From the NCBI GenBank assembly GCA_023313575.1, contig JAJTTP010000027.1, positions 372,001 to 436,000 on the forward strand: a DNA stretch of 64,000 nucleotides, written 5' to 3'. The position numbers and the translations under genes were made by a program. Under the pieces are notes generated by a model. That model was not told the DNA's origin, ran no database searches, and was given only the letters and a program-made list of their open reading frames with translations. The DNA is from Eutypella sp. D-1 (taxonomy: Eukaryota; Ascomycota; Sordariomycetes; Xylariales; Diatrypaceae). This document shows, piece by piece, positions 2,536 through 14,146 of this stretch; positions within the stretch are counted from its first letter, which is position 1, and every line of letters begins with the position of its first letter.

Positions 2536-3572
2536 CGTAGTAGATTGCTAAGTGATGGCATTAAGTAGAATTCCAATTTGAGGGCATTGGAAATTGAAGA
2601 GATATAGTGTGCGCTTGCCATGGTGGCACCTTTATAGTCGCGGCCGCATTGCGGAGCGCCCCGGGGTTTCATCGGTGCCGGCATCGCCCCATCGACTTGG
2701 AAATATAGCTGATTGACAATCCGACAAAATCAGGATATCAACAGCTACATTACTAATTATATATGCATAAGCATGCTAGCATGTATTTGGTTAGCACCCT
2801 TCCCTTAGGATCATTCGTTCACTTTATAGACGCTCGCTCTCGTTTATAGATGCACGTCTCGTGACTATCGATCTGAGCCGCGGTGATCCTCTATTAGGAA
2901 GAGGTCCCGACAAGATAGCCGATCCCACCTCATCTTCACCTAGGCTTTGCCACTCAACATTCTCTATCTGCGAGTGCCGGGGAACGGTGCAATTCGGAAA
3001 GCAACATGTCGCCGTCCCCGATGGCAGTATATACGGTTCTTTGATCAACAGGTGTCATGCTGTATCCAGGCTCTGCTGGGATGTATTCTTTTCATTTCAG
3101 CCTTGTCACATACCCTTCGAGAGATGATACTCTCGATCATATCACTTAATAACCCTTGGTTGTACAAGGCTAATGATTGAGAGATGCTTGAAGCATACTG
3201 ATTGCTGAGATCGGAACCCAAGAGAAAAGGGGCCGAGATACGACTACACACCGTAAGATACCTACCTAGGTATTCATAGGACATCCGGGCATAACTGAGT
3301 GCCTCCTCCAAGTCTGAGGCTCCAACTACATGTCGCAAGTTATTGCTAGTTTTAGGCTATGGTCCTGTGGAGGCGTCTGTTTTCCTACGACGATATGCCA
3401 ATCGGGCCAAAACACTTTGAGGCGGTTCGTGGCTTAAATCAATGTAGCGCGTTTATACAAAATACTACTTGTAATTACATTCGCAATCTTTCTAGTCCAC
3501 CATTTCCCTTGCACCACCTACTGTCTCGTATCAAGCTCAGAAGTCTCCCCCATCACACCCCTTTTCGGGGCT
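2536..3572. other. Intergenic region, no gene recognised
   Basis: About 1 kb between the quinone reductase start and the short-chain dehydrogenase stop. Short open frames on both strands have no recognisable domain and overlap one another. A CCTAGGTA-type motif occurs near 3265. Promoter elements for the quinone reductase are expected at the left end but I cannot point to one. Confidence 0.5.
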
Positions 3573-4642
3573 TCATCCGTCGAATGCAACTTTGAGTGCA
3601 GTGTTATCCTTCGTTATTTTAGCCCATTGTAATGTCTGAATCCATAGCATCTGTTGTTTGGCTTCGTCTTGGCTTTCGGGTGAGCTGACGTCTTTCTTGA
3701 GCAGTGTAAAGAAGCCTTGTTCTCCCTTGTAGATCGGATTGACAGCCAGCTCGATGATATCGTGGCCACCCTCTGTCGAAGAACGCAGAGTTGGTGCACC
3801 GAGCCGCAGGAGAGGGAGCAACGGTTTCAAAAAGTACTTCTGCAGTCTATGCATGTTCTGAGGCGTATTCCGGGTGAGAGCACGGGAGTCGGGAAAATTG
3901 CCAGGGTTCACGGCGACAGCATCGATATACGACAAGGTCTCGTCCTAATGGTAGCCGCATGCGAAGAGCATAATTGTCAGTCCACTGCCAGCAATGTTTT
4001 TCCAGCCATGCTTACTTTCTGTATGTACCGGTTCAACGCATACATCCACGTCGTGAGGACCAACTTAGACGTGGCATACCTCTCATAGCCGCGTCCTTGT
4101 TTGTCATCGTCAACGGACGGGTTCTCAAGTAGACCGAGGTCGGTGGGAATAGATGGCGGATACTTCTCCATCGCATTCTTTCCCGGCCAGTGCGAGTCGC
4201 TCGAAATCAACACCACGCGGCCACCATTCCCAAATTGGCCGAGCAGACGCAGGACAAGCGCGGCGTGGGAGATGTGGTTCACTTGTAGGGTTTTGTCATA
4301 ACCGTCAACTGTAAGTTCAGGGTCTCCCACCAAATTCCAGTAGTAGGCATTGCAGATTACGGCGGCGATTGGTGGATATTGGCCGCTGGCAATACCGACT
4401 ATGATCAAGTCGCAGAATTCGTGCGTGTCGTGCAGGCTGGCCAGATCAAGCTGATGAATATGGGCTTTAGCTTGTGGGAAACGAGCTATGATTGCACGAA
4501 GACTTTGAGTATGGACGTCCGAGTCTGAGGCGTCTCTCACGGTGAAGATGGCCGTATGAGATGGATAAGTTTTCAGGAGATGCTCGGCGGCATGTAGAGC
4601 GACGGAGCCGTTGGCGCCCGTTAGAATGATGGAGCCCGCCAT
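3573..4642 (-). CDS. Short-chain dehydrogenase/reductase
   Basis: Two exons (4642-4016 and 3944-3573) give 332 residues. The intron, GTAAG at 4015 to TAG at 3945, is phase 0; joining gives RYIQK-DETLSYID without a break. The N-terminal TGANGSVALHAA (8-19) is the glycine-rich NAD(P)-binding turn. VNHISHA (121-127) holds the conserved Asn, LISSDS (146-150) the catalytic Ser, and YATSK (189-193) the catalytic Tyr and Lys. The family's usual NAG at strand 4 is NAY here (98-100). It belongs to the extended retinol-dehydrogenase / protochlorophyllide-reductase-like group common in fungal secondary metabolism. The product and substrate cannot be told from sequence. It lies next to the quinone reductase and P450 at the left edge. 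Confidence 0.88.
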
Positions 4643-5551
4643 TCTGGATGTTATAGAGTTCTATGGAGGGTGAGGGTTAGATGTCACGGTGGAGAATGTA
4701 AAATGAAGGAGGGAAATATTAAGCAGCGGGCGGTAGAAGGATGAGAAAGGCTTTCGCGCCTCTCCCACCATTCCTTCATGTTGGTAGTTCGCTCTTGTTT
4801 GGCACACCTTGAGTCCGTTTGCTTCCGAATAGTCAAGGAATAGATATATTAATCCCATGCAAGGGGTTCTCATTTATCTGTGTTTGTTACACGACGTCGC
4901 ATGGAATCTGCTTACCATGCATAATGACGTTGATACATGTAACACACATAAACCAATATATCATCACTGGCCCCCAGTGAGCGCTTAGGGTGTCTACGTG
5001 TGTTCTTCTACTCGATAGCATCCAGCTGTTACGGATTGGTCACCCGTATAGGTTCTCCACCATATGTCCAGGGGGTTCACATATATATATATATATGGCT
5101 GTAAGCACCAGTATGATTACCACCATTGCAATCATTCACCAATCTTTTAGCCCCGATGGTGCAACGGTATGGTCCAACCGTAACACCAGCATCCAGACCA
5201 GCCATGCCCTGAATATGCATCGTAGCGCTTATTTGATCTTAGTTAGTGATGGCTACGGCTCAGGGGCGCCGTGTGACTCTTATACAGGAGCGGCAATAAA
5301 GGCCTTTAAGGAAACAATGACTGAAGCTCACTGTGGCCAATTTTCCCGCTCATGTGAGCTGCTTTCCGTCAGTGTCTACTGTCAATGTGTAATGCCAATA
5401 TTCAACTAATGACTGATAGAGAACTGAGAACGTCGAGCACCAGGGCGGCGGGGATAGGGATCAAAACCAAGGTGAATAGACATATCATGGAAGTCTTACT
5501 CAAAGTTACGGACGAGTTTATGGATATAGAGAATCGACAAGAGACCTTCGG
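4643..5551. other. Intergenic region with a short (TA)n run
   Basis: About 0.9 kb with no supported gene. A pure AT-dinucleotide run lies at about 5080-5096. The open frames seen across 4990-5409 lack any domain or plausible codon bias. Confidence 0.5.
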
Positions 5552-6880
5552 TCAGATACCCCAGACCTTCGCCACTAAGGCCTTCGGGACCTTCTCGACA
5601 CTCGAAGCGGCATGCTGCAAAGCCAAGCGCATCAGGTTGAGTGACTGGCTGCCAAGATACAGCGGCACCTTGAGGCGTTGGCCTTCCTCGATGGCCGCCT
5701 GGGTCTGTTGTGCGAGAGCACCCAGCCCTTCGGTATCGGCCGCGAGATCCTGTTCACGGCAAAGCCGAATAATCTCTGGACCGACCGAGCGCAGCATCGT
5801 GCTTCCGCCGGCGGCATTGATGCACAGGTCAAACACTTGGTCCAGGTCCAGCCCGCATCTCTTGGCAAATGTCAGCGCCTCCGCAGCCGAGCACAGATTG
5901 ATACCTTTCAGCAGCGCAACTACAAGCTTCAGCTTTTCCTTCTCGTCCTCAACCTGTCCTTTCACAGGGCCGACCTTGTCCTTTCCCTCGGTATACATCC
6001 TGATCATTCCACTGTCGTCATCGGGACCGTAGCCGAGGCCCAGACCGGCGAAGTAAACCTGCTCAGCCGTGCTCGCTAAAGGTGTTGGAAAGCCATACCG
6101 CATCGCCTCGGTCGTGATGATGCCGGTGTCTTTCAAGATGATGGTCAGCGCGCTGGAGAGGGGCTGGAAGCCCGTCGCCATTCGCGGTACCCTATGCTCT
6201 AACATCCACGCCCATGCCTCCGACTCCAGTAATGCCTGGTGCGCGGTGCTAAATTCCAGACCAAGCCGGGCCGCAAAACCCATCGCTTCGCTTGCGCCTA
6301 GGATCTGGTTCGCCGCCAGTACCTGGTGCACCATCTTCATATTGCTCCCAGCACCAATCCCACCCTTGACGATATACAGCTTGTGCTCGTCGGCCAGCTC
6401 CTGGAGGAGGAATCGTCCCTTTTCCAGCGCCGCGTCGGAAGCACCCGCCATAATAGACAGCGTACCATCTGCCGCACGCACAGATCCACCGGAGACCGGC
6501 GCGTCTATCAGGAGAATATCGCTCCGCCCAGCCTCCGCCAGCTGCTTTTCTAGGCTCTGTACATAGGCACACGGCACCGTCGAACATAACAGGAGACTAG
6601 CCCCCTTGGGCATGGCCGGGACTGCCGGATCCGAGCCTTCGAGGAGAACTGCCTGCGCCTGCTGCGCAGTCGCGACCATACAGATACAGAAGTTCTTGCC
6701 GGCGACTGCTTCGGCGGGTTTCGTGGCCGTATGACCGCCCGCTTCTCGGAACCGGTCGAGCGTCGGCTGCCAGACGTCGAAGCCGGTCACGCTGTATCCC
6801 TGCTTGATGAGATGCGTGGCCATCCCGAAGCCCATGGCCCCGAGGCCTATAAAGGAGATAGCAGGCTTTGACGATTCCAT
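5552..6880 (-). CDS. Beta-hydroxyacid dehydrogenase, L-threonate dehydrogenase-like, with extra C-terminal domain
   Basis: This single-exon gene encodes 442 residues, against about 290-310 for ordinary 3-hydroxyisobutyrate / L-threonate (LtnD) dehydrogenases. Residues 8-165 are the NAD-binding Rossmann domain, with GLGAMG at 12-17. DAPVSGG (126-132) is the substrate-binding signature. Lys182, in the family's G-x-G-x-x-x-K stretch, aligns with the catalytic lysine. The helical C-terminal domain runs to about 300. From about 330 to 440 a second helical segment resembles a repeat of that domain without its own Rossmann fold. The reaction expected is NAD-dependent oxidation of a C4 sugar acid or similar beta-hydroxyacid. 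It is divergent from the class II aldolase (821 bp apart) and sits in a row of sugar-phosphate genes. 3-hydroxyisobutyrate or tartronate semialdehyde reduction are alternatives. Confidence 0.85.
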   Translation of the reverse strand: MESSKPAISFIGLGAMGFGMATHLIKQGYSVTGFDVWQPTLDRFREAGGHTATKPAEAVAGKNFCICMVATAQQAQAVLLEGSDPAVPAMPKGASLLLCSTVPCAYVQSLEKQLAEAGRSDILLIDAPVSGGSVRAADGTLSIMAGASDAALEKGRFLLQELADEHKLYIVKGGIGAGSNMKMVHQVLAANQILGASEAMGFAARLGLEFSTAHQALLESEAWAWMLEHRVPRMATGFQPLSSALTIILKDTGIITTEAMRYGFPTPLASTAEQVYFAGLGLGYGPDDDSGMIRMYTEGKDKVGPVKGQVEDEKEKLKLVVALLKGINLCSAAEALTFAKRCGLDLDQVFDLCINAAGGSTMLRSVGPEIIRLCREQDLAADTEGLGALAQQTQAAIEEGQRLKVPLYLGSQSLNLMRLALQHAASSVEKVPKALVAKVWGI

Positions 6881-7701
6881 GACGAGGTGAGTTCTTAATC
6901 GGTGACGTTTTTTGATTTCTTCTACGTCTGGGGGACTAGTGTAGGCTGGCTCACCCTATGGTCTATCCAGATATTCGGGAATGCCTACGTTTGACCTGGG
7001 TACTTACGAGACCACCCTACTTACGACGGTACGGCAACTAACGCTGTTCGCCGGCCCTAACCCCTGCCCTGGTGCAACCAATTTAGCCGCCGTGAAAATC
7101 CGGGGTAGGTTGTACATCTCCTGAGGGGGTGGGGATCAGGATATCGTACTAACTACGTAGTTTTTCGGGTTATGATTCTCCGCATAGCCATCGGCGCCTT
7201 AGGACGCTATCGGGTATAAACTCCCCGAAATCGGCTTCCGCGAATTTCACATGGAAGTCTACGGCTCGGCTGATGATTGTCCGACCCGCAGCGATACAGT
7301 TACGTTGAAAGTCTTTCTAACATACCTATGTATATCCACTTCGTGGTTGTGATGATGATGGTGGTGCGGGCGGGTGGCTATTACCCCTCGCACTATTCTC
7401 CGAGGGCTGGGCGAATGCGCCGCGATCCGGTGGAAGGGGTCGCCAGTAAAAAGAACTGTCGGTCATGTTAGTCGCATGAGCCAGCGGTGCACATGTAGAA
7501 TACCCGATATTTACTTAATAAAAGTACTCTTAAGGTTTCTTGGACGCAGTCGCATTGTCAAATCAAACGTGGAACAATTCCAATCCAACAGCTGATTGTA
7601 GTGTTGAAGATATCGTGCAAGGAATTGAATCTTAGATACAATTTCTTTTTCACGTCTCTATTTACGCAGTCACTTTGTCGCCGATTTGAAATCTAGTTAA
7701 G
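6881..7701. promoter_or_regulatory. Divergent promoter region between dehydrogenase and aldolase
   Basis: This 821-bp gap separates the starts of two divergently transcribed genes, so it must hold both promoters. It contains at least two matches to the fungal carbon-catabolite repressor consensus SYGGRG (CTGGGG at 6928-6933 and GTGGGG at 7129-7134). Such 6-mers occur often by chance, so regulation by a CreA/Cre1-type repressor is only a suggestion. Confidence 0.4.
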
Positions 7702-8568
7702 ATGGCTCGACCCGACCTCTCCAAAAACCGATCCATGGCAATCCTCAACAAGGCGCGCGAAGGCGGCTACGCCGTGCCGGGGATGTGCTGCTATAACATC
7801 GAGTCGATCATCGCGACGGTTCGCGCCGCCGAGGCCGCCCGCTCTCCGGCCATGGTCCTCTTATTCCCCTGGGCCATCGAATACGCGGGTGCTTCCCTCG
7901 TCAAAGCCGCCGCGGACGCCGCCCACAGCGCTTCGGTCCCCGTCAGTCTGCATCTGGACCACGCGCAGAAACCCGAGCTGGTGCGGCGCGCCGCCGACAT
8001 CCCCGACGGCTTCGACTCTATCATGTGCGACATGAGCCACTACGAGAAAGAGGAGAATCTGGCGCTAACCCGCGAGCTGGTCGCGTACTGCCATGAGCGC
8101 GGCATCGCGACCGAGGCGGAACCCGGTCGCATCGAGGGCGGCGAGGACGGCGTCGCTGCGACCGCGGATCTCGAGGCCGTGCTGACCACCCCGGAACAGG
8201 CCCAGGAGTTCGTCGACACTGGCATCGAGATGCTGGCGCCCGCCTTCGGCAACGTGCACGGCGAGTACGGGCCCCGCGGGATCCAGCTCGAGTACGACCG
8301 CCTCGAGTCCATCAACAAGGCGGTCGGCGATCAGGTCCGTCTCGTATTACACGGCGCCGACCCCTTCACCGAGGAGATCTTCCATCGGTGTATCCAGGCC
8401 GGCGTGAGCAAGGTCAACATCAACAAGGGCATGAACAAACACTACGCTGCCGTACAAGAGGAGATGCGCGGTAAGCCGCTCACTAGCGTTATCGAAGCCG
8501 GCACGGACAGAATGCAGAAGGCGATCGAGGAGTACATGAGGCAACTCGGCAGTGCTGGAAAGGCTTAA
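7702..8568 (+). CDS. Class II (zinc) ketose-bisphosphate aldolase family protein
   Basis: This single-exon gene encodes 288 residues, the usual size of the FbaA/GatY/KbaY family. HLDHA (84-88) supplies the catalytic Asp86 and zinc ligand His87. Zinc ligands also include the His of NVHGEYG (His186) and of LVLHGADPF (His217). The NINKGM stretch (239-244) is the phosphate-binding loop typical of the family. The enzyme cleaves or forms ketose (bis)phosphates through a zinc enediolate. It is not the housekeeping fungal fructose-1,6-bisphosphate aldolase, which is about 360 residues and differs at the N-terminus. Its neighbours are a threonate-type dehydrogenase, a DhaK-type kinase, an RpiB and a TIM-like protein. 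That setting suggests a C4 or otherwise unusual sugar-phosphate substrate. Family assignment is firm; substrate is inference. Confidence 0.9.
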   Translation: MARPDLSKNRSMAILNKAREGGYAVPGMCCYNIESIIATVRAAEAARSPAMVLLFPWAIEYAGASLVKAAADAAHSASVPVSLHLDHAQKPELVRRAADIPDGFDSIMCDMSHYEKEENLALTRELVAYCHERGIATEAEPGRIEGGEDGVAATADLEAVLTTPEQAQEFVDTGIEMLAPAFGNVHGEYGPRGIQLEYDRLESINKAVGDQVRLVLHGADPFTEEIFHRCIQAGVSKVNINKGMNKHYAAVQEEMRGKPLTSVIEAGTDRMQKAIEEYMRQLGSAGKA

Positions 8569-9018
8569 AATTGGACACCGGCGAGACCAGTCACTACATA
8601 GAAGAAGGGGGTCGCTCAAGCAGAAGCGAATGGGCAGATGTACATAGACACGGCACGAAGGCACGATACGGCATAGCATAAAACTCTGGCATAAACTAGA
8701 GCACGACATAGCTTATGAAACTGTGGAATAGAGCATAAAATCGGTGCATAATTTTTTTGCAAAACTACTTACGCAGCCAAGTCCGGGACTGTGGATCGCA
8801 ATAAGAGACGGTAACAAGTGCTAATGCCTCTCTTGCGTCACTCCGTGCGGCACACACATGCAAAACTCGGCAAACATGCGGGTGTTTACGGGAAATGATA
8901 TATATGATAATGCAATAAGAGGAAGAAAACAGCTTCTTCAAAAATTAATAATTATTATACAGATGACTTAGCAAGTATCATGACCTAGTTATGAGAAAAC
9001 TTCTCGCCTCATTTCATT
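8569..9018. other. Convergent 3' intergenic region
   Basis: 450 bp between the stops of the aldolase and the kinase. It is A/T-rich towards 8930-8970 and holds no gene. Both transcripts must end here. Confidence 0.5.
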
Positions 9019-10797
9019 TCACAAGCCCTCCTGAAACCCCTTGATCACCACCATGGCGCCCCATGCTCCCGGGTCGGGAGGCAACTCCTTGGAATCGGTG
9101 CCGGTGCCTACATACGTCGCCCTGCCCAGCCGCGGCGTCATGGTCTTGGTGGCCTCGGCGCCCTGAATCGCGGCCTTGACGCCGGCGCCGAAGTCGCCTC
9201 CTGTGCGCAAAGCCTCGGCAAACGGGATCAGGGTGTCCATGACGGTGCGGTCGCCAACCTTGGCGGGCGTGTATCGTCGCAGGTTCTCAAGCGATGCAGT
9301 GAGAGCCTTGACCCAGAGCTTCGGGACGTCGCCTCCTTCCGCGCCCTGCGCCAGCGCCGCGTTCTCCTCCAACGCCACCCGCAGCGCCACGAAGAAGATC
9401 CCCAGCACCCCGCCCAGCGTCCCGCCCATCTTGCTCTCGATGATCTCCTCCAGCTCCTGCAGCACCGAGACCACGGACCCGTCCTTCGCCAGCCCGTTGT
9501 CCACCGCCGCCAGCAACGCGCTCGCACCCGTCCGCAGCGTCTCGCCGCAGTCCCCGTCGCCCATGATCGTGTCCCACTTCGTGAGGTCGGGCTCCGCGGC
9601 GATCAGGTCCCCGCACGCGCGCCGCAGCGCGCTCTCCAGCGTCCCGGGGGCGATCTTGAGGTCCCGCGCCGGGTCGACGGGCCGGCGTCCGTGCGGCGGC
9701 GGCTGCACGATCTGTTCGCTGCGCGGTCGCCGGCGCGCCTGCGCGCCGCTCATGGATTCCCAGCTCGTGTTGGTCCGCGCGTCGAAGAACCCCTTGATCT
9801 CCTCCGCGCTGTACGAGCAGTTCCGCGCCGCCGCCGTCACGTTGATGATGGAGACTGAGAACGCCGGCGCGTTGAGCGACGTCTCGAGGAAGCCGGCTGC
9901 TAGACGCACCGGCTCGATTTTCCAGTCCGCCGCCAGCTGCTCTAGTAATTCGTCGACTAGTGCGCCTAGCTCTAGGTGCGATATCCCGCCGAAGTTGCTG
10001 ACGAGCAGGATCGTCTCGTCGCCGGGTTGGAAGTTCACGTACCCCCGCTCAGGATCCTTCTCGTCCAGGCAGTACGTCAGGATCTGCTTGACGAGGTCTT
10101 GCGGGCTCGGTGCGGGGCTGAGTTTCCGGTAGCCGGGCTCGTTGTGCGGTCCCGTGCCAATCTCCACCTCGTTTTCTTGGAGCGTGCCATGCGTCGCCCG
10201 TCCTGGTACGTGGCAATGGTCTAGCGTCGCCGCGATCGAGACGATCTGCTTGGAGAAGGCAACTCCGAGGTCATACACTTGATCGAGCGAACCTCCCGCC
10301 CCGGCAGCACCGCCCATCACCTTGAGTACGCCGAGCTGGCCCGCCAGGCCCCTGCGACCGACCAGACTACCCTTCTTGCCCACCGATACATCGTCGCCGC
10401 AGATGATCATCCGGCACTTGTGACCCCGCGCGATGCCCTTCTCGTTGGCGAGGCCAAAGTGCAGGCAGTCGCCAGTGTAGTTCGTGACCACCAGGATGGA
10501 CCCCTTGTCGGAAGGAACCGCCTCGATTCCCGCCAGGATCTGTTTTGTGCTGGGCGAGGCGAAGATGTCGCCCTGCACGGAGGCCGCGAGCATGTTCTCG
10601 CCCACGTATCCCGACCAGGCGGGCTCGTGGCCGGAACCACCTCCGCTGATGATCGAGACCTTGGTCCTGTCAAACGTCGTGTCGTACACCACGCGGTTCG
10701 TCTCGTCTAGGCTTAAAGATGGGTTGTAGGCAATGATACCCCGAAGGGCCTTATTGACCAGTCCATCTGGGGACTGGAAGAGATGGCGGTTCGACAT
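9019..10797 (-). CDS. ATP-dependent dihydroxyacetone/erythrulose-type kinase (DhaK-DhaL)
   Basis: This single-exon gene encodes 592 complete residues, the length of fungal single-chain DAK kinases. The DhaK domain (about 1-340) opens with SGGGSGHEP (51-59). His218, in the TGPHNEPG stretch, is the conserved histidine that in this family holds the ketose covalently. A linker rich in Arg and Pro follows (about 350-380). The DhaL nucleotide-binding domain begins near 385 with MGDGDCG (412-418), whose aspartates bind magnesium-ATP. The reaction is phosphorylation of dihydroxyacetone or a related short ketose; bacterial relatives (LerK and others) act on erythrulose. Two isomerases of erythrulose-phosphate type lie directly downstream on the other strand, which favours a C4 substrate. 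Glycerol or methanol-type DAK function is the alternative. Confidence 0.93.
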   Translation of the reverse strand: MSNRHLFQSPDGLVNKALRGIIAYNPSLSLDETNRVVYDTTFDRTKVSIISGGGSGHEPAWSGYVGENMLAASVQGDIFASPSTKQILAGIEAVPSDKGSILVVTNYTGDCLHFGLANEKGIARGHKCRMIICGDDVSVGKKGSLVGRRGLAGQLGVLKVMGGAAGAGGSLDQVYDLGVAFSKQIVSIAATLDHCHVPGRATHGTLQENEVEIGTGPHNEPGYRKLSPAPSPQDLVKQILTYCLDEKDPERGYVNFQPGDETILLVSNFGGISHLELGALVDELLEQLAADWKIEPVRLAAGFLETSLNAPAFSVSIINVTAAARNCSYSAEEIKGFFDARTNTSWESMSGAQARRRPRSEQIVQPPPHGRRPVDPARDLKIAPGTLESALRRACGDLIAAEPDLTKWDTIMGDGDCGETLRTGASALLAAVDNGLAKDGSVVSVLQELEEIIESKMGGTLGGVLGIFFVALRVALEENAALAQGAEGGDVPKLWVKALTASLENLRRYTPAKVGDRTVMDTLIPFAEALRTGGDFGAGVKAAIQGAEATKTMTPRLGRATYVGTGTDSKELPPDPGAWGAMVVIKGFQEGL

Positions 10798-11895
10798 TGT
10801 GTGTAAGTTCTATCTGTCTTCTCTGTGTTGTAGGTTGGGGATTTGAGTTTCGTTGCCTTTTTCACTTTCTTTCCTGTTGTTGGTTTCCTCCGTCCTTTCG
10901 TTTCACACACAAAGACCCGACGTGCTATTCGTCTTGAAATATCGTGAAATGTCCCGGCGACTTATCAGGGGGGCTGTCGAAAAGAACCAACCTAGGTGAC
11001 TAAAAAGGGTTTACTTACATCTCCGGGAGTGGGGAAATCTCGGAGACGACGCGTCTTTCCCAGCAAGCGAGGGCGGGCTTTTTGGTCAAGAGGGGCCCAG
11101 AACACCAGAACACGGTGACGGCGGAATGACCGATTGGATAATCCCGGGCGAAACTAACTAGGCAGTGTTCTAAAATTTTCTTTCTCTTCACGAGACTCTT
11201 CTCATACCCCGGAAGTGGGAATTGCCAAACTGGGTCAATTCAACAACTACGCCCTCGCACTGACAACTATTGAGCCCCGCGTTCGGACGAATAGACCCGG
11301 CTCGGCCCCTGCGATCGGTAGGTGGGGTTTTGGTGATCCATTGGCTTTTTAGTGTATAGAATAGGTCAGGAGGGCTATCTAAAAAAGGGCAGGATAGGGG
11401 GGTATGGGGAAAGTGTGGATGAGGGGTACGAATTACCACGAATACCGCCCGCCTATCGTCTACCGCCTTGTTGCCCAACATAATAAAGGACTACATACCC
11501 GACTAGTCCGAGTAGTGTCTCTCAGGGTCCGGAAGTTTATTGAATTTAGCCTCGGAAAGCCCAATCTAGTAATCCGATGGCGATCTAATACCCCACATCG
11601 CTACGGCCTGGGCTTCCCCGAGCGTGATGCAATAACTAAGCAAGTATTCCGTAGGGGTTCTTGGGTAAGTAGGCAGGTTAGGTAGGTAAAAGATAGATCT
11701 TCTTTTTTTCTGGTCACGAGCCGGAGAGGAGAGTAAGTAAGCATAGTATAGGAGAAGGCAGAAACGTAAGATAGGAGAGATATTGAGTGGTTACGCACCC
11801 CCTGACGAAATTGCGAGATTGCGAGATTGCAGAACATCACATGCCACACCGAAGTTGAGGAGATCAGTCAGACTCACGATAATATTTCCACAAAA
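10798..11895. promoter_or_regulatory. Divergent promoter region between kinase and RpiB-like gene
   Basis: About 1.1 kb between divergently transcribed starts. A match to the CreA-type SYGGRG consensus (GTGGGG) is at 11029-11034 and a CCTAGGT motif is near 10990. Short open frames here (for example 11404-11685) have no recognisable domain. The sites are weak evidence on their own. Confidence 0.4.
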
Positions 11896-12470
11896 ATGAC
11901 TTCGCCTAAGTGGAAGATCGCCATGGCCTGCGATGTAAGTGTTACGTGGTTGCTTGTTTCATTGAGAAGAGCAATAGGGGGTGGTGGAAAAGTCAAGAGT
12001 ATCTATCTGCTAACCGCTCTCTCTCCTCTTGACTTAAGGACGCGGGCGTAAACTACAAGAACAAAATCAAAGCCGACTTCGAAGCCGACCCGCGCGTCGA
12101 GTCCGTGACGGACGTCGGCAGCCTGACGACAGACGACAAGACGGCGTACCCCCTGCGTGCGGCCGACGCAGCGCGACTCGTGGCCGAGGGCAAGGTGGAC
12201 CGGGCCCTGCTCATCTGCGGCACGGGCCTCGGGGTCGCCATCTCGGCTAACAAGATCAAGGGCGTGCGCGCCGTCACGGCCCACGACAGCTTCTCCGTCG
12301 AGCGCGCCGTCCTCAGCAATAACGCCCAGGTCCTGTGCATGGGCGAACGGGTCATCGGCCTCGAGCTCGCCCGTAGACTGGCGAAGGAGTGGCTTGGTTA
12401 CGTCTTTGACACTAATAGTGCGAGCGCTGCTAAGGTCGCTGCTATCACGGAGCTGGAGAAGGAGTTATAA
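11896..12470 (+). CDS. RpiB/LacAB-type sugar-phosphate isomerase
   Basis: Exons are 11896-11934 and 12039-12470. The intron (GTAAGT donor, CTAAC branch site, AAG acceptor) is phase 0 and splits ACD from DAGVNY, giving 156 residues, typical of Rpi[17 protein letters not shown] (70-85) is the family signature with catalytic Cys73, followed by GVRAVTAHD (88-96). The usual N-terminal D-H-A-G is D-D-A-G here (13-16), a change in the substrate pocket region. RpiB proteins interconvert ribulose- and ribose-5-phosphate; relatives such as bacterial EryI convert D-erythrulose-4-phosphate to D-erythrose-4-phosphate. Fungi normally use the unrelated RpiA for the pentose step, so a special catabolic role is likely (inference). 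It is divergent from the kinase and tandem with the TIM-like gene. Confidence 0.9.
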
Positions 12471-13249
12471 CCCCGGATATTTTGCGTTTATATAGATCGT
12501 GACCTAAGTCGGACGTAAATCCGCCTCGAGGTTTTAGGACAGTTCTGTTGTATACAGTCCGGCTATATCGACCTTTTTAGGATGCTTGAGCCCATAGACA
12601 GCAGCAATACATAAAACAAATAAGGCTTGTATTTGTGCATCGATATTTTTCTACGTGTCTCTGCTATTCCTGTACCTATAAGCTTCCACTTGTAACATCA
12701 GCTACCTAGGTTTCTGCGGTGGCAGCTATCTGAGACGCCATGCGACAGTCTGGTGCCTCAACTAGCACATCCCAGACCCGACCCCACATGGACCCGGACA
12801 ACCACAGAGCTGGGTATGTCCAGTCCGGGCGAAGACGGGGCCGGGGACCGGGAGATCGATTGAAGCTAAGTGTGTGTATATAATAAGTATACCCGACTTA
12901 GGTAGCTTATTTGGATACTTACTCTAGTTCCTAAAAGTTCCCTCTACCAAGACCTAGGTAATGCCAATGAACCAAATCCAATTCCAGGTCTAAAATTATT
13001 CCGTGCTTCATTCAGCACGCTACCCTACCCGGCTACCTGGATCATCTTCAGCCCGCGCCTCGACATCTCCCGGCAGAAGAGTAGAGGCAGGCAGAGGAGA
13101 GAAAAAGAAGCCGGGCATACTTCATTTCATATTCACTGTTACAACTTAGTTGCAGGAGTCACCGAAGGTTCCTCCTACGCGTACCTAGACTCACATGCCG
13201 TCACCCATACATAATCTCTAGGTATACACAGAAACAACCTCCCCCCAAA
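12471..13249. other. Intergenic region with TACCTAGG-type motifs
   Basis: About 0.8 kb with no gene. TACCTAGG and related CCTAGG elements occur near 12704 and 12950. It precedes the TIM-like start at 13250. Confidence 0.5.
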
Positions 13250-14146
13250 ATGGCTTCCACATCCCCGCCATCTGCCCCGCGCCGCCGCCGTCGGCTCGTA
13301 GGCGTATCCACAAAAATGTACTTCTCCTACGCGCAAACCCTCTCCTACGTCTCCCAAGTCCTCGAACACCTGTCCCCCTCCCCCTCCCCCTCCCCCTCCC
13401 CTCCTCTGCACGACCTCATAGACATCTTCATCATCCCCGACCACATAACCCTGGCGGCAGTAGCAGCCCTGCTAAAACCCACCCCCATCCTCCCCGGCGC
13501 CCAAGACGCCCACCACGAAGACCGCGGCGCCGTCACCGGCGCCGTGTCCCCCGCCGTGCTCTCCGAAGCGGGCTGTCGCGTCCTCGAAATCGGACATGCG
13601 GAGCGCAGACGCCTTTTCGGCGAGACTGATGCGGATGTTGCTCGTAAGGCCGTCGCTGCTGTCCGGAATGGCTTGGTGCCGCTTATTTGCATTGGTGAGG
13701 TCACGCGGCCGGGGGTGGGGGTGGTGGAGGCGGCGGCGGCTGCGGTAAACGAATGCAAACCCCAAATCGAAACCGTCCTCTCCGCTCTACCAGACACAGC
13801 AGACGTAATATTAGCCTACGAACCAGTCTGGGCGATCGGCGCCCCGACGCCCGCGGCTCCCGCACACGTCGTCGCTGTCGCGCGCGGTATCCGCGCCCTC
13901 GACTGCGTGAAAGCCCGTGCTGATGGCGCTACTAGGATCGTGTATGGTGGTAGTGCTGGCCCGGGGTTGTTTGCGAAATTTGTGAAGGGGGGTGGGAAAG
14001 GGGAAGGGAAAGGGAAAAGGGAAGGGGAACGGGAAGGGGAGGGGGAAGGGGAAGAGGGGGAGCCTGTGGATGGCCTGTTTTTGGGCCGCTTTGCTCATGA
14101 TCCTGAACAGTTCGTTAGGACTATCCGGGAGGTCGCGGAGGCTTGA
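13250..14146 (+). CDS. Triosephosphate-isomerase-like sugar-phosphate isomerase with low-complexity insertions
   Basis: This single-exon gene encodes 298 residues, longer than the 248-250 of housekeeping TPI. The fold is recognisable from EIGHAERRRLFGE (113-125, with catalytic His116), AYEPVWAIG (189-197, catalytic Glu191) and the phosphate loop YGGSAG (232-237). Lys22 is kept, but the Asn two positions before it in true TPI is Ser20 (GVSTKMYF). GVS-x-KMY and IGHAERR resemble the bacterial EryH/LerI-type L-erythrulose-1-phosphate isomerases more than TPI. Two insertions break the barrel: a Ser-Pro repeat at 42-51 (coded by a CCCCTC-type repeat) and a Gly/Lys/Glu/Arg stretch at 247-271 (from a purine repeat at about 13985-14063). 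A role in C4 sugar catabolism with the kinase and RpiB is inferred. Confidence 0.85.
   Translation: MASTSPPSAPRRRRRLVGVSTKMYFSYAQTLSYVSQVLEHLSPSPSPSPSPPLHDLIDIFIIPDHITLAAVAALLKPTPILPGAQDAHHEDRGAVTGAVSPAVLSEAGCRVLEIGHAERRRLFGETDADVARKAVAAVRNGLVPLICIGEVTRPGVGVVEAAAAAVNECKPQIETVLSALPDTADVILAYEPVWAIGAPTPAAPAHVVAVARGIRALDCVKARADGATRIVYGGSAGPGLFAKFVKGGGKGEGKGKREGEREGEGEGEEGEPVDGLFLGRFAHDPEQFVRTIREVAEA
13985..14063 (+). repeat. Purine-rich (GGGAAA/GGGGAA) imperfect repeat inside the TIM-like gene
   Basis: About 80 bp of almost pure purine, built from GGGAAG and GGGGAA units. It stays in frame and codes for the 247-271 Gly/Lys/Glu/Arg insertion. It is probably a slippage-expanded simple repeat. A pentamer repeat (TGGGA)n follows just after the stop, at about 14184-14211. 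Confidence 0.8.

What the first reader, a model, noticed from the sequence alone, without database searches (positions are those of the whole stretch)
5552..14146. Candidate fungal C4-sugar (erythrulose/tetronate) catabolic gene cluster
Five neighbouring genes encode a threonate-type dehydrogenase, a class II aldolase, a DhaK-DhaL kinase, an RpiB-type isomerase and a TIM-like isomerase. Seen in sequence: all five families and their active-site residues. Established: in Brucella and Mycobacterium, erythritol is used through erythrulose kinase, a TIM-like isomerase (EryH type) and an RpiB-like isomerase (EryI type). Bacterial threonate use pairs LtnD-type dehydrogenases with aldolases. Plants carry a large fusion of LtnD-like and class II aldolase domains. 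Inference: a eukaryotic cluster combines both logics. I know of no described fungal cluster of this make-up.
Basis: partly seen in the sequence, partly recalled or inferred. Interest (0 to 1): 0.8.

Follow-up and report, generated by a model that had tools for sequence, protein, structure and literature searches.

The report
Fungal four-carbon sugar catabolic gene cluster
A fungus keeps side by side genes that look like two routes for eating four-carbon compounds, one for ketose sugars such as erythrulose and one for acid sugars such as threonate; the ketose half resembles a cluster already known in a yeast, while the combination, and an aldolase with unusual residues where relatives hold the substrate's phosphate, look new.

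Summary
The five genes are real and correctly placed (5552-14146). The neighbourhood is conserved: relatives of the dehydrogenase, aldolase and TIM-like genes share a contig in nine fungi, pairs of them in more, with near locus tags in eight. The same genome repeats aldolase + RpiB + kinase in a second cluster and has a third aldolase copy beside a D-erythronate-dehydrogenase-like gene.

The TIM-like protein falls among operon-linked bacterial relatives, not with triosephosphate isomerase; the RpiB has the active site of a Coccidioides enzyme suspected to use shorter substrates; the kinase is fungal DAK-type.

The dehydrogenase/aldolase half resembles the three-step L-threonate pathway, but that link is moderate. 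In 120 of 120 listed fungal aldolases Asp, and in 119 Lys, replace residues that I take (from recall) to hold the substrate phosphate, and no OtnK lies in the cluster. I infer an aldolase acting on an unphosphorylated oxo-acid, its product phosphorylated by the DhaK-type kinase. New variant of a known kind; nothing was assayed.

The parts
5552..6880 (-). LtnD-like NAD-dependent dehydrogenase (NAD_binding_2 + two NAD_binding_11 stretches), 442 aa
   Evidence: best NCBIfam model is L-threonate dehydrogenase NF043037, 273 bits, below its cut-off of 350
6881..7701 (.). intergenic region between the divergent LtnD-like and aldolase genes
   Evidence: gene coordinates
7702..8568 (+). class II F_bP-aldolase-type protein, 2-OtnC-like, 288 aa
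8350..8361 (+). codons of HGAD (aa 217-220): Asp where bacterial relatives have Ser or Thr
   Evidence: Asp in 120 of 120 listed fungal relatives; Ser/Thr in 25 of 25 bacterial ones
8416..8427 (+). codons of NINK (aa 239-242): Lys where bacterial relatives have Thr
   Evidence: Lys in 119 and Arg in 1 of 120 listed fungal relatives; Thr in 25 of 25 bacterial ones
9019..10797 (-). DhaK-DhaL (dihydroxyacetone/erythrulose-type) kinase, 592 aa
   Evidence: TIGR02361 (glycerone kinase) 677 bits, above its cut-off of 575; tree
10798..11895 (.). intergenic region between the divergent kinase and RpiB genes; Yarrowia has the same divergent pair with an erythritol-inducible bidirectional promoter
   Evidence: coordinates; PMC9835291 passages
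11896..12470 (+). RpiB-family isomerase, exons 11896-11934 and 12039-12470, 156 aa
   Evidence: (TIGR02133 180 bits, cut-off 168)
12315..12317 (+). codon of Ser106, equivalent to C. immitis RpiB Ser109, which replaces the ring-opening His of canonical RpiB
13250..14146 (+). [quoted passage not shown]
14072..14101 (+). codons of GLFLGRFAHD, motif shared with operon-linked bacterial TIM-like proteins; TPIs have LVGGAS here

Best explanation
This is a conserved ascomycete C4 catabolic cluster with two branches. (1) Tetrulose branch: the kinase phosphorylates L-erythrulose, the TIM-like enzyme converts L-erythrulose-1-phosphate to D-erythrulose-4-phosphate, and the RpiB-type enzyme makes D-erythrose-4-phosphate for the pentose phosphate pathway. 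(2) Tetronate branch: the LtnD-like enzyme oxidises L-threonate (or a stereoisomer) to the oxo-tetronate, and the 2-OtnC-like aldolase decarboxylates it. Because the aldolase has lost the presumed phosphate ligands and no OtnK is in the cluster, the aldolase probably acts on the unphosphorylated acid and yields dihydroxyacetone, which the same DhaK-type kinase turns into DHAP; the kinase would then be a hub shared by both branches. Shown here: gene content, conservation, family placement, residues. Inferred: every substrate and reaction, and the sharing of the kinase (that step alone about 0.27).
For: Five genes verified. Conserved linkage in other fungi; in Diatrype stigma locus tags 3102 LtnD, 3103 aldolase, 3106 TIM leave two tag numbers between, as many genes as in the window. 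A second cluster in the same genome has aldolase + RpiB + kinase, and the third aldolase copy lies beside a gene whose best NCBIfam model is D-erythronate dehydrogenase (278 bits, cut-off 325). TIM-like: 23 fungal rows one group (100/99) inside a bacterial operon-linked group (100/99), away from TPIs (99/96). RpiB: Cys/Arg/Ser/Ser/Lys as in the C. immitis enzyme, whose authors suspect shorter-chain substrates, also in 80 of 80 bacterial relatives, of which 74 of 80 have a DhaK-type kinase in the fetched flank. The Yarrowia cluster has the same trio and divergent kinase|RpiB pair. The aldolase groups with two of three OtnK-linked bacterial aldolases (99/93). The three-step L-threonate pathway pairs LtnD with an F_bP-aldolase-type 2-OtnC (passages), and LtnD and DenD give the same 2-oxo-tetronate (passage).
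Against: Two proteins pass curated models under other names: RpiB as ribose-5-phosphate isomerase (TIGR02133) and the kinase as glycerone kinase (TIGR02361); [quoted passage not shown] The only TIM-fold chain labelled L-erythrulose-1-phosphate isomerase (11ef) falls in a different group from the fungal proteins, and the operon-linked TIM-like rows are not one group. The aldolase/2-OtnC grouping is moderate: one of three OtnK-linked aldolases falls elsewhere, the program warns of long branches, the reduced set gives 94/95, and a rival arrangement is not rejected (p 0.188). Only 2 of 9 fetched actinobacterial LtnD+OtnK loci hold an F_bP-aldolase, and none is annotated beside LtnD in 4 plasmid loci. 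An OtnK-type kinase exists elsewhere in the genome, so phosphorylation may precede the aldolase. No polyol dehydrogenase, transporter or regulator was recognised in the cluster. No convincing shared promoter motif. The two genes between aldolase and TIM in other fungi were not seen. The phosphate-binding role of the changed residues is recalled.
Confidence: 0.68

Rival explanations
1. Tetrulose-only pathway: the cluster serves erythritol/erythrulose, and the LtnD-like enzyme and aldolase serve that same route, for example the aldolase condensing erythrose-4-phosphate with DHAP, or cleaving L-erythrulose-1-phosphate.
For: Yarrowia's pathway is described with kinase, TIM-like, RpiB and a dehydrogenase; the aldolase is also beside RpiB and kinase in the second cluster, where no NAD_binding_11 protein was found.
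Against: The aldolase lacks the Ser/Thr and Thr kept by bacterial relatives; its third copy lies beside a D-erythronate-dehydrogenase-like gene; LtnD and aldolase share contigs in many fungi.
Confidence: 0.13
2. Two unrelated neighbouring modules, held together by shared ancestry of the chromosome segment and not by function.
For: The two halves resemble two separate known pathways; no convincing shared promoter motif was found.
Against: The second cluster rejoins aldolase with RpiB and kinase on another contig, and the linkage reaches Thelonectria olida, outside Xylariales (placement recalled).
Confidence: 0.1
3. Branched-sugar (apiose-type) pathway: the kinase phosphorylates apulose and the aldolase splits the product to DHAP and glycolaldehyde (recalled from bacterial work, paper not seen).
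For: A class II aldolase beside a frame with a DhaK-type match is also found in two actinobacterial loci (L231, L232).
Against: Those two aldolases are a separate clade (100/100); TIM-like and RpiB point to erythrulose phosphates; LtnD is unexplained.
Confidence: 0.06
4. Natural erythrulose-monophosphate module: the aldolase joins DHAP and formaldehyde to L-erythrulose-1-phosphate, then TIM-like and RpiB give erythrose-4-phosphate; the kinase supplies DHAP.
For: The window has the aldolase, LerI-type and DerI-type classes of the synthetic EuMP design (passages).
Against: The authors call that cycle new to nature, and FbaA, a class II aldolase, did not work in their in vivo test; the aldolase residues argue against a DHAP donor; LtnD is unexplained.
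Confidence: 0.03

Closest known systems
Yarrowia lipolytica erythritol utilisation cluster (EUF1, EYL2, EYK1, EYL1, EYD1)
   Same: DhaK-type erythrulose kinase, RpiB-type and TIM-like isomerases side by side; kinase and RpiB divergent (passages)
   Different: The window has an LtnD-like dehydrogenase and an aldolase, and no recognised erythritol dehydrogenase or regulator in the cluster
Bacterial kinase-RpiB-TIM-like operons (M. smegmatis LerK/LerI/DerI recalled, paper not seen)
   Same: RpiB 65-76% identical to the window's in the 80 best genome loci; kinase in 74 of 80 and TIM-like in 18 of 80 flanks; RpiB near TIM-like in 4 of 4 plasmid loci viewed, DhaK-type kinase in 2 of 4
   Different: Their kinases are a distant lineage; LtnD-like in 5 of 80 and F_bP-aldolase in 3 of 80 flanks
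Three-step L-threonate pathway (LtnD, 2-OtnK, 2-OtnC) and the Arabidopsis LTD fusion
   Same: LtnD-type dehydrogenase with an F_bP-aldolase-type protein (passages)
   Different: No OtnK in the cluster; the fungal aldolases lack the Ser/Thr and Thr kept by 3 of 3 OtnK-linked bacterial aldolases
Solved structures 3qd5/3sdw/3sgw (C. immitis RpiB), 3pm6 (putative fructose-bisphosphate aldolase) and 3s6d (putative triosephosphate isomerase); species of the last two recalled
   Same: Best-scoring solved relatives of three of the five proteins
   Different: The C. immitis RpiB is described as a putative ribose-5-phosphate isomerase with possibly altered specificity; no C4 pathway is proposed in the parts read
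Synthetic erythrulose monophosphate (EuMP) cycle
   Same: Aldolase, LerI and DerI classes (passages)
   Different: Engineered in E. coli, where FucA and RhaD worked as the aldolase; LtnD is not mentioned in the passages seen

Membership tests
Yarrowia-type erythritol cluster | DhaK-type kinase, RpiB-type and TIM-like isomerases adjacent | tested here: met
Yarrowia-type erythritol cluster | divergent kinase and RpiB genes | tested here: met
Yarrowia-type erythritol cluster | erythritol dehydrogenase and regulator in the cluster | tested here: inconclusive
   none between 5552 and 14146 and none recognised among the longer ORFs scanned beside it; two SDR-type frames upstream (window 3977-4642, below cut-off; L036:8166-8882) are not excluded, and short or spliced genes could be missed
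Yarrowia-type erythritol cluster | kinase orthologous to EYK1 | not testable with these tools
   no Yarrowia sequence obtained
LerI/EryH isomerase | falls outside TPI, with operon-linked bacterial TIM-like proteins | tested here: met
   (100/99), motif
LerI/EryH isomerase | groups with PDB 11ef, the chain named L-erythrulose-1-phosphate isomerase | tested here: not met
   11ef (partial sequence) lies in a second operon-linked group (98/93)
DerI/EryI-type RpiB | Ser in place of the ring-opening His, single Lys at the phosphate | tested here: met
   the Pararhizobium copy (L171) and 5ifz share the Ser but have Asn for the Lys
DerI/EryI-type RpiB | score above NF051858 (D-erythrulose-4-phosphate isomerase) cut-off | tested here: not met
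   144 bits against 240
LerK kinase | groups with actinobacterial operon kinases | tested here: not met
   eukaryotic DAK lineage, 100/100
LtnD | score above NF043037 cut-off | tested here: not met
   273 bits against 350, yet the best of all models
Three-step L-threonate pathway | OtnK adjacent | tested here: not met
   the only DUF1537 (PF07005) match in the genome is on contig C56
2-OtnC aldolase | clusters with OtnK-linked F_bP-aldolases | tested here: inconclusive
   99/93 with two of three such aldolases, 94/95 in the reduced set
2-OtnC aldolase | Ser/Thr and Thr at the presumed substrate-phosphate site | tested here: not met
any | catalytic activity on C4 substrates | not testable with these tools
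   needs enzyme assays

The most novel reading that the evidence does not exclude
A eukaryotic, kinase-last tetronate pathway: an F_bP-aldolase-fold enzyme that has exchanged its phosphate ligands for Asp and Lys decarboxylates unphosphorylated oxo-tetronate to dihydroxyacetone, and one DhaK-type kinase serves both this acid route and the L-erythrulose route, so that threonate/erythronate and erythritol-type substrates converge on one clustered hub.
Probability: 0.27. Interest if true: 0.7.

Novelty: new variant of a known kind. Interest (0 to 1): 0.55.

Why it matters
L-threonate is a major breakdown product of plant ascorbate (PMC12540250), which fungi living on plants should meet (inference). 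My two searches for a fungal threonate route listed none (no paper; 74: three papers, listings only), in a library that lacks most subscription journals. The cluster names testable genes for such a route, offers a function for a solved fungal RpiB whose substrate was left open, and gives a candidate F_bP-aldolase-fold enzyme that may not use a phosphorylated donor.

Tried and rejected
Rejected: TIM-like as a housekeeping TPI paralogue; RpiB as a canonical ribose-5-phosphate isomerase, although it passes the TIGR02133 model of that name; the whole cluster as an actinobacterial transfer, since the kinase is of eukaryotic lineage and the aldolase at most 42% identical to the actinobacterial matches listed.

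Led nowhere: a His/Asn residue in LtnD did not separate groups. Promoters: four 8-mers shared by the three intergenic regions against 0.6 expected from shuffles, no 9-mer; of 39 CGG-type patterns tried only CGG-N10-CGG occurs in all three (2, 1, 1; 0.45 per kb elsewhere), which I do not count as a motif. The RpiB tree was poorly resolved and its three fungal rows did not form one group. The plasmid search with the aldolase gave 74 records, all under 60% identity, those named in the 30 rows shown being FBA, KbaY or tagatose/ketose-bisphosphate aldolases (one neighbourhood viewed, nothing relevant). Four plasmid loci of LtnD relatives had no annotated F_bP-type aldolase in the flank. The shared contig length of 1,690 b is a coincidence, because both genes cannot fit.

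Not done: no structure was predicted and no fold search was run. The kinase and RpiB had no protein-database search (all three went to aldolase, TIM-like and LtnD), so no fungal kinases beyond this genome and PDB 26vk were compared.


Full report
What is there. The window is G000:C20:372001-436000 of a 48.5 Mb fungal assembly. Its closest named aldolase relative is from Diatrype stigma, 93%, so the fungus is a xylarialean ascomycete, probably near Diatrypaceae (inference). The five genes stand as < LtnD | aldolase > < kinase | RpiB > TIM >. Pfam places them as NAD_binding_2/11, F_bP_aldolase, Dak1+Dak2, LacAB_rpiB and TIM. Upstream lie a P450, a flavodoxin-type reductase and SDR-type frames; downstream, of ten long ORFs scanned, those with a Pfam match are ordinary genes such as Rft1, a DEAD helicase, a ubiquitin hydrolase and LepA. 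I recognised no erythritol dehydrogenase, regulator or sugar transporter; two SDR-type frames upstream (window 3977-4642, weak; L036:8166-8882) cannot be excluded as polyol dehydrogenases.

Conservation. No fungal genome browser was available, so I used the protein lists. Each shows the best 120 of 2378 (aldolase), 5504 (TIM-like) and 1611 (LtnD) matches with the length of the longest contig. Shared contig lengths: aldolase/TIM 22, aldolase/LtnD 27, TIM/LtnD 39, all three 9; one aldolase/LtnD match (1,690 b) is a coincidence. Many shared contigs are large and prove little about distance; at 130 kb or less the counts are 4, 9 (without the coincidence) and 10. The all-three contigs are those of Diatrype stigma, Biscogniauxia marginata, Hypoxylon fuscum, Jackrogersella minutella, Daldinia sp. 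FL1419, Xylariomycetidae sp. FL2044, Annulohypoxylon maeteangense, Durotheca rogersii and Thelonectria olida, the last a hypocrealean (placement recalled). Locus tags are close in eight species or isolates: D. stigma 3102/3103/3106; two Monosporascus isolates and Hypoxylon texense (LtnD to TIM 4 apart); Anthostomella pinea (105620 to 105660, 4 apart if tags run by tens); Thyridium curvatum and Neonectria punicea (LtnD-aldolase 1 apart); Xylaria bambusicola (aldolase-TIM 4 apart). What lies between was not seen.

Other copies in this genome. DhaK-type genes: three places, C20, C4 and C14. RpiB: two, C20 and C14. TIM: two, C9 and C20. This aldolase subfamily: three, C20, C14 and C18 (a further F_bP_aldolase match on C45 is more distant). 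OtnK-type DUF1537: one, C56. On C14, aldolase, RpiB and kinase lie within about 7.3 kb, with a fungal transcription-factor-domain gene, a GMC oxidoreductase, an MFS transporter and an SDR around them and no TIM-like gene. On C18, the aldolase copy is beside a gene whose best NCBIfam model by far is D-erythronate dehydrogenase (278 bits, cut-off 325, next 57). LtnD and DenD both lead to 2-oxo-tetronate (passage of PMC10580937). On C11, a second LtnD-like gene (60% identical) lies between an MFS frame and a regulator-like frame (the regulator reading is by eye, the piece scanned had no Pfam match).

Tetrulose half. TIM-like: the motif GLFLGRFAHD is in the window and 20 of 22 sampled fungal relatives (2 have GRFGHD). 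All 17 RpiB-linked and 4 plasmid TIM-like rows carry GR at that place, while 10 of 10 bacterial housekeeping TPIs and the own C9 TPI have LVGGAS. In a 58-row tree the 23 fungal rows are one group (100/99), next to a Rhodococcus protein (99/99), within an operon-linked group (100/99); TPIs are apart (99/96). Against me: the operon-linked rows are two groups, and PDB 11ef, the chain labelled L-erythrulose-1-phosphate isomerase, is in the other one (98/93), which lies on the TPI side of the midpoint; by plain score 11ef (111 bits) hardly exceeds a TPI (107 bits). In the four annotated plasmid loci of TIM-like relatives that I viewed, RpiB is nearby in 4 of 4 and a DhaK-type kinase in 2 of 4. RpiB: the 80 best genome relatives are 65-76% identical and, by title, actinobacterial except one probable contaminant; 74 of 80 have a DhaK-type kinase, 18 a TIM-like, 5 an LtnD-like and 3 an F_bP-aldolase in the fetched flanks, some of which are cut by contig ends. 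Cys, Arg, Ser, Ser, Lys at the sites named for the C. immitis enzyme are in the window and in 80 of 80. The canonical E. coli enzyme differs (His printed for 1nn4; 2vvr has Asn there). The C14 copy has the first three; its last exon was not modelled. The authors of the C. immitis structure report Ser in place of the ring-opening His, one positive residue at the phosphate, and suspect shorter-chain substrates (PMC3212906, part 1 of 4 and passages). Kinase: TIGR02361, named glycerone kinase, above cut-off. Window and C14 kinases form a clade (97/95), joined with the C4 kinase and PDB 26vk (100/100), far from 20 bacterial rows (18 of 71 actinobacterial kinases, every fourth, plus two plasmid rows). 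In Yarrowia the same three families form a cluster induced by erythritol and erythrulose, with a bidirectional promoter between kinase and RpiB genes (PMC5992420 and PMC9835291, passages). This is the strongest functional anchor.

Tetronate half. The LtnD-like protein scores best with L-threonate dehydrogenase (273 bits, cut-off 350; next 156). PMC12540250 (passages) describes the bacterial three-step route LtnD, 2-OtnK, 2-OtnC, with 2-OtnC an F_bP-aldolase-domain protein, and reports that Arabidopsis plants without LTD (LtnD-LtnD-OtnK-F_bP_aldolase) lack detectable L-threonate dehydrogenase activity. To find 2-OtnC-like proteins I searched 296 actinobacterial genomes for DUF1537 (42 with a match) and fetched 40 stretches, 24 chosen for DUF1537 and 16 for aldolase matches. 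Fourteen of the 40 hold a match to the fungus's own OtnK; 3 of these 14 also hold an F_bP-aldolase, 2 of the 3 with LtnD, while 7 of the 9 LtnD+OtnK loci show none. The fungal aldolases group with two of the three OtnK-linked aldolases and one further bacterial aldolase, seen twice in the set (99/93); the third OtnK-linked one falls elsewhere, and the program warns of long branches. In a reduced set the group has 94/95, and a rival arrangement was not rejected (p 0.188). The link is moderate.

The odd residues. In 25 of 25 actinobacterial relatives the loops read HG[AG][ST] and N.[DNA]T; in 120 of 120 listed fungal relatives the first is Asp, and in 119 Lys (1 Arg) stands for Thr; metal and catalytic residues are unchanged. 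In the wider, overlapping set 38 of 38 other bacterial rows keep Ser/Thr and 37 of 38 keep Thr; 3 of 3 OtnK-linked aldolases keep both; the two kinase-adjacent ones keep Ser and have Ser for Thr; the C14 copy reads HGTN/NVNK, the C18 copy HGAHED/NVNG. That these two residues hold the DHAP phosphate is recalled from class II aldolase structures, not tested. If right, the fungal enzyme is unlikely to bind the phosphate in the usual way, and Lys might bind a carboxylate.

Mechanism. I commit to a two-branch C4 cluster (0.68). The tetrulose branch rests on Yarrowia, bacterial operons and active-site residues. The tetronate branch rests on family resemblance, the DenD-like neighbour of a paralogue and conserved linkage. 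The sharing of the kinase is inference from the missing OtnK, the lost residues and the second cluster that again pairs aldolase and kinase (0.27).

Print. Searches brought up the Yarrowia cluster; no title or abstract listed, and no passage read, describes a five-gene fungal cluster of this make-up or a fungal threonate route. Subscription papers are mostly not in that library. T. reesei consumes erythritol (PMC11210129 passages). Zhang 2016 and Guo 2024 are known to me here only through PMC12540250; the M. smegmatis and apiose papers are recalled and were not seen.

Noticed in passing
L028 and L029 (G000:C14:581001-601000): Second cluster in the same genome: aldolase, RpiB and DhaK-type kinase with a fungal transcription-factor-domain gene, GMC oxidoreductase, MFS transporter, SDR and a beta-lactamase-fold gene, but no TIM-like gene; perhaps a D-erythrulose version.
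   Followed up: partly
L032 (G000:C18:420001-430000), 2822-3976 and 4357-5306: D-erythronate-dehydrogenase-like gene near a third aldolase copy of the same subfamily, with a transporter-like frame further on (read by eye).
   Followed up: partly
L030 (G000:C11:833001-843000), 5042-6418: Second LtnD-like gene, 60% identical, between an MFS frame and a regulator-like frame; possible threonate uptake locus.
   Followed up: no
window 13250-14146: The TIM-like gene carries a Ser-Pro repeat near the start and a Gly/Glu/Lys-rich low-complexity stretch just before the GLFLGRFAHD motif, encoded by G/A-rich repeats.
   Followed up: no
window 5552-6880: The LtnD-like protein has two NAD_binding_11 stretches after one Rossmann domain, as does its C11 copy; a part-duplicated form of the LtnD1-LtnD2 tandem of plant LTD is possible.
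   Followed up: no
L079 (contig titled Vibrio cholerae strain 35D): Carries kinase, TIM-like and RpiB matches; its TIM-like row pairs with Arthrobacter agilis (91/47). Probably contamination of that assembly.
   Followed up: no
L169 (Erwinia sp. E602 plasmid), 5235-9427: Kinase and TIM-like genes followed by an epimerase-family gene and one annotated as phosphogluconate dehydrogenase C-terminal domain protein: perhaps a bacterial case of a dehydrogenase distantly like LtnD beside erythrulose genes.
   Followed up: no
L075 (Cellulomonas sp. APG4), 7119-8003: LtnD-like match (39%) directly before a DhaK-type kinase and RpiB.
   Followed up: no
L231 and L232: Two actinobacterial loci with a class II aldolase beside a frame that matches the DhaK-type kinase (28%); the two aldolases form a clade of their own.
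   Followed up: partly
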